Below, one piece after another: positions 3,812 to 25,623 of a stretch of DNA of 42,034 bases (within the stretch, counting starts at the first letter, position 1; each line of letters starts with the position of its first letter). The stretch comes from Deltaproteobacteria bacterium. Its GTDB lineage: Bacteria > Desulfobacterota > Dissulfuribacteria > Dissulfuribacterales > UBA3076. Made by a program: the position numbers and the translations under genes. Where the stretch lies: contig PQXD01000019.1 of the NCBI GenBank assembly GCA_003194485.1, positions 1-42,034 of the forward strand. The letters run 5' to 3'. The notes beneath the pieces were generated by a model, which had not been told where the DNA came from, searched no databases, and saw only the letters and a list, made by a program, of their open reading frames with translations.

Positions 3812-3867
3812 TTCCCGGCAGGATGGTAATTATTCACTCTGACCAGGAGTGCAAACGGTTATGCCAG

Positions 3868-18684: not shown

Positions 18685-18704
18685 TATCTAAACCCTTTAT
18701 AAGC

Positions 18705-19012
18705 AAATATTCTTGTGAACCCGTGGCCCCACGTAACCGTTCACTGGCAGGGGATATTTCTTTTCACTTCACACTTCAGCCCCTTAAAAGCCGAGAAAAC
18801 TACGGGGCTTCCGTTAAACTGTTCAAAGAAATATCCCCTGCCAGTGAACGGTTGCCATCCGTGCCCTGCCGCAGGAGCGGTTTGCCTTTTTTCGGGGTTT
18901 TGGGTAGCGGGCCGGATTGCACTGCCTCTCCGGTCTGCGATGAGTGAGCCTTGAAACCCGGAAAAAGGTAAACCGCTCCAAGGCAGGATATAACGGGTTC
19001 ACTGAATATTTA
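18705..19012 (-). repeat. MITE-like element, copy B, between leuD and leuB
   Basis: The element is bounded by imperfect terminal inverted repeats: AAATATTC..TGAACCCGT at 18705-18724 and its complement ACGGGTTCAC..GAATATTTA at 18993-19012, one indel apart. The segment 18851-18983 matches copy A (12436-12567) in inverted orientation. It also holds a 119-nt hairpin (18735-18853) that copy A lacks. It lies inside an operon, so it would be transcribed. Confidence 0.75.
18735..18853. repeat. Perfect 29-bp hairpin nested in the repeat element
   Basis: Arms 18735-18763 (AACCGTTCACTGGCAGGGG...) and 18825-18853 are perfect reverse complements. The 61-nt loop itself holds a 6-bp inverted repeat, AGCCCC (18778-18783) and GGGGCT (18804-18809). 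Confidence 0.9.
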
Positions 19013-19038
19013 CCTTTATAAAAAGAAAAATTCAACAT

Positions 19039-24286: not shown

Positions 24287-24320
24287 TAAGGGCTTATTAG
24301 AGATTATTTACTCCATATCT

Positions 24321-24431
24321 GGCGGTCGGCAGGGCCTTTTGCAGGATTTCAAAGCATAATCCGGTGCAGATCTCAATTGGGTGTGCTATCCGCCCGCGGT
24401 TGAAATCCTGCAAAAGGCCCTGCCGACCGCC
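24321..24431. repeat. Perfect 31-bp hairpin between ilvC and psd
   Basis: Arms 24321-24351 (GGCGGTCGGCAGGGCC...) and 24401-24431 are perfect reverse complements around a 49-nt loop. No T run follows on the - strand, so it is not an ordinary terminator. It fills most of the gap between psd and ilvC. Confidence 0.9.
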
Positions 24432-24471
24432 ATGAAGCGTAAATGTTTAAAGGGCCAAGAAAAAACCAAGG

Positions 24472-25481: not shown

Positions 25482-25623
25482 GTAACCGTTAAAACTCCTT
25501 GTCAGCCGGGAAATGATTAATTACCTTTCCTAATCGGTGCAAGACCGTTCGAAATTCACAAAACAACTGCTCAGACTTTCGGTGAACCCTGAACCCTGAA
25601 CCTCTAAACCCGCGAACGGTTAC
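25482..25623. repeat. GTAACCGTT/AACGGTTAC inverted repeat between ilvN and ilvC
   Basis: GTAACCGTT (25482-25490) is matched by AACGGTTAC (25615-25623). Between 25581 and 25612 lie CCCTGAAC tandem units. The right arm contains the ilvN stop codon as its TTA, just as in the asd-fba gap. Confidence 0.65.

What the first reader, a model, noticed from the sequence alone, without database searches (positions are those of the whole stretch)
24321..24431. 31-bp perfect hairpin between ilvC and psd
Both arms are exact over 31 bp around a 49-nt loop, and no T-tract follows. Perfect arms of this length imply recent origin or selection. It separates amino-acid genes from phospholipid genes in the same transcript, so it could act as a processing or differential stability element.
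Basis: seen in the sequence. Interest (0 to 1): 0.5.

Follow-up and report, generated by a model that had tools for sequence, protein, structure and literature searches.

The report
Jumping DNA hairpin with self-matched arms
The perfect hairpin is one copy of a small mobile DNA repeat that landed between two genes, and its two arms probably match exactly because DNA copying rewrote one arm from the other, not because the hairpin was designed to control these genes.

Summary
The hairpin is real: 33 bp exact arms (24320-24352 / 24400-24432), 47-nt loop, no T-tract. It is the core of a ~154-bp non-autonomous transposon (MITE, "family A") inserted with an 8-bp target duplication 10 bp before psd; the site is empty in 7 of 7 same-genus genomes. 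The genome holds at least 8 hairpin copies of family A and 142 cores of a related family B, whose ends match an IS66 transposon of a sister genome. One named relative is labelled SeepSRB2.

The notable part is the arms. The 8 copies here have exactly matching arms (15-35 bp), yet the arms differ between copies, with changes on both sides together, indels included. In 18 measured copies with both arms from five sister genomes the longest exact match is 5-9 bp. The inner segment is inverted in 3 of 7 orientable copies here, in one case relative to orthologous copies. Arm homogenisation plus spacer inversion is the published signature of template switching. RNase III processing of an ilvC-psd transcript is plausible but untested. 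Ordinary kind, new family; the lineage-wide concerted arms are the interesting part.

The parts
24297..24450 (-). Family-A MITE copy (whole element, ~154 bp; strand is that on which the loop reads TTTCAACCGCGGGC first, also the strand of ilvC and psd)
   Evidence: Similarity to 7 other own-genome copies; stretch absent from the ilvC-psd junction in 7 of 7 same-genus genomes; ends placed by eye
24320..24352 (.). Left arm of the perfect hairpin (33 bp)
24400..24432 (.). Right arm of the perfect hairpin (33 bp)
24353..24399 (-). 47-nt loop with an inner hairpin; among the most conserved parts of the family
24451..24458 (.). Target duplication, ilvC side (AGGGCCAA on +)
   Evidence: 6 of 8 bases equal to the other copy; sequence, empty site
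24289..24296 (.). Target duplication, psd side (AGGGCTTA on +)
   Evidence: as above
24433..24450 (-). Decayed alpha end (TTAAACATTTACGC...; family consensus GTAACCGTTCACACTCCC)
24297..24319 (+). Decayed beta end (family consensus GTAATTATTCACTCCC)
25482..25524 (+). Collapsed family-A footprint (both ends, hairpin deleted) between ilvH and ilvC, flanked by CCTTCCTG / CTTTCCTA (6 of 8 equal)
   Evidence: read by eye; collapsed copies elsewhere
3826..3862 (-). Second collapsed family-A footprint, flanked by GCAGGATG / GCCAGATG (6 of 8 equal)
   Evidence: read by eye
18703..19013 (+). Family-B MITE copy with exact 8-bp duplication CTTTATAA (18695-18702, 19014-19021); carries another hairpin element at about 18733-18855

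Best explanation
The hairpin is the body of a MITE, a non-autonomous DNA transposon of IS66-like design, that inserted between ilvC and psd in this lineage with an 8-bp target duplication. Steps shown: insertion relative to empty sites, membership of a multi-copy family, arms that match within each copy here but differ between copies, imperfect arms in sister genomes, and opposite orientation of the inner segment at one orthologous site. Steps inferred: the arms became exact because, at hairpins or cruciforms formed during replication, one arm was used as template for the other (quasipalindrome template switching). That both homogenises arms and can invert the spacer; slippage across the stem gives the collapsed footprints. 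In an ilvC-psd mRNA the 33-bp duplex probably acts as an RNase III-type cleavage site and weakens coupling of psd to ilvC translation, as a side effect of the insertion.
For: Copies: 7 core matches in the own genome, 0 for the reversed control, plus an eighth at C18. No insertion at ilvC-psd in 7 of 7 same-genus genomes. Clean 8-bp duplications at L046, L047, L054 (CCCTGTAC, AGTCTACG, GATTGAAG). For L003 the duplication is GTGCCTGA (a ninth base, C, also agrees), with no A element at that junction in 6 of 6 relatives with the gene. Arms: longest exact arm match 15, 17, 22, 22, 24, 33, 35, 35 in 8 of 8 own-genome copies. In 20 measured copies from five sister genomes it is 4-9, and 5-9 in the 18 that keep both arms (Mann-Whitney p 2e-5 and 3e-5). 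Outer 14 bp of 7 own-genome copies: 97 Watson-Crick pairs and 1 G-U of 98. On the 7-copy alignment 15 of 33 pairs changed on both sides, 21 cells both-sided against 3 one-sided and 8 unpaired; four of five measures exceed all 500 shuffles, the fifth (further pair types) is reached by 64. On 7 relatives' copies 1 of 31 pairs, not above shuffles. Templated direction: the arms of other copies differ (TTTTGCAGGG against TTTTTCGGG-type); L001 and L006 carry the first version on both arms, L004 the second on both, and stem-length differences of L001 and L004 are mirrored in both arms. Spacer inversion: L005 (dprA-topA) has flanks 80-85% identical and co-linear with L049 and L050, but its element aligns in reverse to L050; L006 and L007 are inverted relative to their ends. 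Published signature: PMC8604942 (abstract, introduction, first results and passages seen); PMC8794818 (abstract and start of introduction).
Against: Most family-B copies in the same genome keep mismatched arms: only 4 of 91 examined (of 142 cores) have exact runs of 15 or more, so the process does not act equally on all hairpins, unless B is much younger. Diverged copies in sister genomes (L048-L050, L226, L227) are not homogenised, so age alone does not explain the contrast; why this lineage differs is unknown. Inner mismatches persist in L003, L005 and L007, so homogenisation is partial. Inverted spacers here are ~46 nt, versus 2-5 substituted bases in the yeast cases. RecA-type conversion between arms would leave the same traces. 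12 of the 20 comparison copies come from one genome's burst, so they are not independent, and 2 of the 20 (L052, L055) have lost the left arm. The orientation contrast (3 of 7 vs 1 of 20) is weak (p = 0.04), and the call for L052 is at the threshold. The element of L049 gave no BLAST match to L005; only its loop score favours the reverse orientation (41 vs 20). No transposase with family-A ends was found.
Confidence: 0.7

Rival explanations
1. Selected RNA element: the hairpin is kept perfect because the duplex in the transcript sets processing or differential stability of ilvC versus psd, like Correia/NEMIS or ERIC inserts.
For: Both genes co-directional with a 185-bp gap; strongly stable RNA duplex; 6 of 7 own-genome copies whose context was examined lie between co-directional genes; RNase III encoded.
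Against: Absent at the same junction in 7 of 7 relatives. Loop is sense in 3 and antisense in 3 of the 6 co-directional cases (strands, genes). Few G-U pairs among varied pairs, which RNA selection would tolerate. Four relatives' elements with imperfect arms still fold well (-42 to -69 kcal/mol), so perfection is not needed for a hairpin. Mirrored indels and copied multi-base blocks fit templating better.
Confidence: 0.12
2. Transposition-linked: the mobilising enzyme requires or creates exact arms (DNA hairpin recognition, or a hairpin intermediate filled in from one arm), so each new copy is born self-matched.
For: Three copies with long exact arms (L001, L003, L006) were not found at their sites in the 7, 6 and 6 relatives examined; exact arms of 15 bp or more in 8 of 8 copies of this genome.
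Against: The burst in G005 has clean target duplications but mismatched arms. L005 sits at a site shared with two sister genomes and differs from them in arms and loop orientation, so it changed in place. DDE transposases of IS66 type are not known to me to read internal hairpins (recalled).
Confidence: 0.1
3. RecA-dependent gene conversion and crossover between the arms, rather than replication template switching, homogenised arms and flipped loops.
For: Arm rewriting and inversion of the inner segment are expected of recombination between inverted repeats; the data fit.
Against: Arm matches are short (15-35 bp), near or below lengths usually needed for RecA recombination (recalled).
Confidence: 0.15
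4. Assembly or amplification artefact.
For: Draft assembly with 87 contigs; stems can disturb assembly.
Against: Eight copies with different arms, target duplications, empty sites and an orthologous copy; the stem is inside a contig with genes on both sides. No reads were available.
Confidence: 0.02

Closest known systems
Correia elements / NEMIS of Neisseria
   Same: Short non-autonomous mobile element with terminal inverted repeats, target duplication and long RNA stem; RNase III acts on such stems (passages of PMC10969869 and PMC2229807).
   Different: Different sequence; RNase III cleavage not tested here; there cleavage is at the terminal repeats, here the long stem lies inside decayed ends.
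ERIC / RUP / RPE-type bacterial MITEs
   Same: ~100-200 bp, stable stem-loops, many copies (passages).
   Different: The passages seen do not describe arms concerted within copies while differing between copies, or inverted spacers.
Quasipalindrome template switching (E. coli, yeast)
   Same: Exact arms produced from imperfect arms, spacer inversion (PMC8604942; PMC7202029, start of abstract in listings only).
   Different: Here across 8 copies of one mobile family in one lineage, with ~46-nt spacers and mirrored indels; no experiment.
IS66-family insertion sequences and derived MITEs
   Same: Ends begin GTAA, 8-bp duplications; family-B ends match the ends of IS66 elements in sister genome G004.
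   Different: No IS66 copy with family-A ends found; the two own-genome IS66 matches are partial and lie near contig ends.

Membership tests
MITE (non-autonomous DNA transposon) | Short (<~500 bp), no transposase gene | tested here: met
   ~154 bp, between genes, no ORF of 60 aa or more confined to it
MITE (non-autonomous DNA transposon) | Multiple dispersed copies | tested here: met
   At least 8 hairpin copies in own genome, more in relatives
MITE (non-autonomous DNA transposon) | Target-site duplication and empty sites | tested here: met
   8-bp duplications in clean copies; at the window copy 6 of 8 bases match; no insertion in 7 of 7 relatives
MITE (non-autonomous DNA transposon) | Terminal inverted repeats | tested here: met
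   GTAACCGTTCAC.. / GTAATTATTCAC.. in clean copies L046, L047, L054; decayed in the window copy
IS66-derived element | Ends starting GTAA and 8-bp duplication (definition recalled) | tested here: met
   Clean family-A copies
IS66-derived element | Ends shared with an autonomous IS66 transposon | tested here: inconclusive
   Met for family B (G004 IS66 elements); no match found for family-A ends
Correia/NEMIS-like regulator | RNase III cleavage of the transcribed stem | not testable with these tools
   RNase III gene present; no RNA data
Intrinsic terminator | GC stem with short loop followed by T-run | tested here: not met
   No terminator-like site at the hairpin; 47-nt loop
Known Rfam RNA family | Match at gathering score | tested here: not met
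   0 matches in the window
Template-switched inverted repeat | Arms homogenised relative to an imperfect state | tested here: met
   in place at dprA-topA; ancestral state inferred from relatives, no tree built
Template-switched inverted repeat | Spacer inversion | tested here: met
   L005 against L050 and, by loop score, L049; L006, L007 and, at the threshold, L052 against their ends
Template-switched inverted repeat | Dependence on replication rather than recombination functions | not testable with these tools
   Needs mutants

The most novel reading that the evidence does not exclude
In this lineage a host or element process actively rewrites MITE arms so that every copy ends up with its own exactly self-complementary stem, a fast concerted-evolution system confined to one branch of the genus; the loop between the arms flips as a by-product.
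Probability: 0.12. Interest if true: 0.7.

Novelty: new member of a known kind. Interest (0 to 1): 0.42.

Why it matters
Covariation between stem arms is normally read as proof of selected RNA structure. Here 15 of 33 pairs covary within one MITE family, while mirrored indels, few G-U states, copied blocks and a flipped loop point to a mutational copying process instead. The family gives a natural dataset (8 copies with exact arms against 18 with inexact arms, one shared insertion site) for telling selected structure from templated structure in bacteria, and it warns against reading a perfect hairpin as functional or recent.

Tried and rejected
Terminator: rejected, no T-run and long loop. Known RNA family: none at gathering score. 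Phage origin: the exact core pattern gave no match in viral contigs. Wide distribution: the exact core pattern in genome contigs gave 4 stretches; L148 and L151 are identical over 1611 and 2780 bases to same-genus loci L046 and L047, and L149, L150 look like chance (no hairpin seen by eye). That tool may leave out the own genome. That corrects my earlier impression that the family is confined to one genus. The match counts are capped, so 'at least 8 copies' is a lower bound. Autonomous partner for family A: a pattern search for the alpha end and a follow-up of a repeated G009 contig end did not reveal one. The first arm-comparison script used a faulty anchor and was replaced. In one search the between-copy arm differences (mean 8.1 of 14) are inflated by stem-length differences and its L048 row is mis-anchored, so only its within-copy counts for the 7 own-genome copies are used, and the between-copy comparison rests. 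One search failed to extract L154, L160, L172; they are. Not in the count: truncated or chimeric copies L051, L162, L164, L177, L224, L225, L228. L052 and L055 were counted there although their left arm is lost; one search repeats the test without them. L216 was not in the counts. L004's loop orientation is unclear and left out of the 3 of 7. Literature: none of the papers listed (lists capped; titles and starts of abstracts seen) is on this family or on IS66 MITEs with such arms; the library is open-access only. The review has no occurrence of 'IS66' in its main text. One search looked in PMC7202029 for exonuclease and inversion terms and found none.

Full report
OBSERVATION. The inverted repeat is there and a little longer than reported: 33 bp exact arms, 47-nt loop, with an RNA fold far below shuffles (-86.1 kcal/mol, z -11.8) and no terminator-like tail. 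It lies between ilvC and psd, both on the minus strand.

WHAT IT IS. A search of the own genome (2.55 Mb, 87 contigs) with the hairpin gives 41 matches, with 40 of 138 candidates scored. They fall into two related families. Family A has the loop core TTTCAACCGCGGGCGGATTGCA: 7 places at up to 3 mismatches with none for the reversed control, and an eighth, more diverged copy at C18. Family B has 142 cores, again none for the control; one lies in this window at 18703-19013 with an exact 8-bp duplication CTTTATAA. Clean family-A copies in relatives show the whole element: alpha end GTAACCGTTCACACTCCC, imperfect stem, loop, and beta end (GTGAATAATTAC and similar), flanked by 8-bp duplications (L046, L047, L054). 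The window copy follows this plan at 24297-24450, with decayed ends and a duplication matching at 6 of 8 bases. The ilvC-psd junction lacks the element in 7 of 7 same-genus genomes. So it is a MITE insertion. Family-B ends match the ends of IS66 transposons in sister genome G004. Two partial IS66 matches occur in the own genome, one followed by a DruA-type ORF. No transposase with family-A ends was found, so 'IS66-like' for A rests on GTAA ends, 8-bp duplications and the loop core shared with B.

WHO. Two relatives' loci are identical to named records: L046 to JAJSZR010000051.1, whose title carries SeepSRB2, and L047 to QNAY01000188.1, Thermodesulfobacteriota bacterium isolate B4_G9. The window's genome is placed in the same genus as these. 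That SeepSRB2 bacteria partner methane-oxidising archaea is recalled; I saw only listings of papers that name them.

THE ARMS. In the own genome the longest exact arm match is 15, 17, 22, 22, 24, 33, 35 and 35 bp (8 of 8 copies). In 20 measured copies from G005 (12), G008 (3), G007 (3), G006 (1) and G009 (1) it is 4-9 bp. Two of these, L052 and L055, have lost the left arm; the other 18 give 5-9. Relatedness, above all the G005 burst, makes the p-values (2e-5, 3e-5) only a guide. The own-genome arms are not one shared sequence. On the 7-copy alignment, 15 of 33 stem pairs have changes on both sides, with 21 both-sided, 3 one-sided and 8 unpaired cells; four of the tool's five measures exceed all 500 shuffles, the number of further pair types does not (64 of 500). 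The same count on 7 relatives' copies gives 1 of 31 and does not exceed shuffles. The outer 14 bp of the 7 copies hold 97 Watson-Crick pairs and one G-U. Stem-length differences are mirrored in both arms (L001 two bases longer than L002, L004 one shorter). The middle of the stem shows direction: the two arms of other copies read TTTTGCAGGG and TTTTTCGGG-type, still different in L003, L005 and L007; L001 and L006 carry the first version on both arms, L004 the second on both. That looks like copying of one arm onto the other, in either direction.

THE LOOP. Relative to the ends, the inner part is inverted in L005, L006 and L007 (3 of 7 orientable own-genome copies; L004 unclear) and, at the threshold, in L052 of G007 (1 of 20 others) (Fisher p 0.04). 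At dprA-topA the flanks of L005 align co-linearly with L049 and L050 (80-85% identity), but the element aligns in reverse to L050; L049's element gave no BLAST match, and its loop scores better in reverse (41 vs 20). So the change of orientation, and the 15-bp exact outer arm of L005 (relatives 5 and 7), arose in place. That the flip happened in the own lineage is inferred from two genomes sharing the other state; no tree was built. Sister-genus elements L229 and L230 also read with opposite loops behind the same kind of end (by eye).

COLLAPSED COPIES. Of 50 alpha-end sites in 8 genomes I fetched 30; 12 of the 30 retain both ends with the hairpin reduced to a few bases (by eye). Two such footprints are in this window, at 25482-25524 next to ilvC and at 3826-3862 (by eye). 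This is expected of slippage across a hairpin.

MECHANISM. Arm homogenisation and spacer inversion together are the described outcome of DNA polymerase template switching between inverted-repeat arms (PMC8604942; abstract, introduction, first results and passages seen). PMC8794818 (abstract and start of introduction) argues that such events create and maintain perfect stems and give multibase compensatory changes. I take this as the best explanation of the perfect arms (0.7). RecA-type conversion between arms is not excluded. Against it: only 4 of 91 examined family-B copies (of 142 cores) in the same genome have exact arm runs of 15 or more, and diverged copies in other genomes are not homogenised, so the contrast between lineages and families is unexplained.

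FUNCTION HERE. Seven own-genome copies sit at ilvC-psd, hemE-hemH, jag-mnmE, dprA-topA, a CdhD-family/pterin-binding pair, rsmG and a gene with a weak match (below cut-off) to CDP-archaeol synthase (all co-directional), and one convergent junction (L216 not examined). The loop faces sense in 3 and antisense in 3 of the 6 co-directional cases (with these contexts). This spread over unrelated genes, and absence in relatives, speaks for insertion tolerance rather than a tailored regulator. A transcript through it would carry a 33-bp duplex, and RNase III is encoded. Cleavage and unequal stability of the two sides, as described for Correia elements and ERIC (passages), is therefore plausible. The insertion sits 10 bp before the psd start, where relatives have only a short gap after ilvC, so translational coupling may be weakened. 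None of this is measured.

VERDICT. The element is a new family of a known kind. The concerted arms of all eight copies, with an in-place loop inversion at one site, are a clean natural case of apparently templated stem evolution and the part worth following.

Noticed in passing
window 18703-19013: Family-B MITE with exact duplication CTTTATAA; its left half carries another hairpin element with 29-bp exact arms (18735-18763/18825-18853). Family B has 142 cores in 2.55 Mb.
   Followed up: partly
L069 849-1730 (G000 contig C34): A DruA-type ORF (Pfam PF14236, 3e-51) follows a partial IS66 transposase match; an ORF similar by eye follows the IS66 element of G004 (L071).
   Followed up: partly
L003 (G000 C43), jag-mnmE junction: In 4 of 6 relatives jag and mnmE overlap (GTG CCT GA). 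The MITE inserted there, and its duplication GTGCCTGA leaves both the jag stop and the mnmE start in place.
   Followed up: partly
L164 (G004 C144), from position 88: Chimeric element by eye: family-A end and left arm, family-B-like loop and right arm, suggesting module exchange between the two families.
   Followed up: no
L017 and L100 (family B): Left flank of the stem reads CCTGCCTTGGAGCGG instead of CCTGCCGCAGGAGCGG, as if copied from the other side; a templated tract running out of the stem.
   Followed up: no
L229, L230, L213, L214 (G002/G003, another genus): Sister hairpin elements with a similar alpha end, 32-46-nt stems of 80-97% complementarity and, by eye, loops in both orientations.
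   Followed up: partly
L057, L058 (G000 C62, C36): Another hairpin family with 25-30-bp exact arms (AACCGGTCACAGGGGAGCTCCTTCT and similar).
   Followed up: no
L154 (G005 C11): A family-A copy lies within a long open frame (959 aa in a rough ORF scan); it may be an in-frame insertion into a gene.
   Followed up: no
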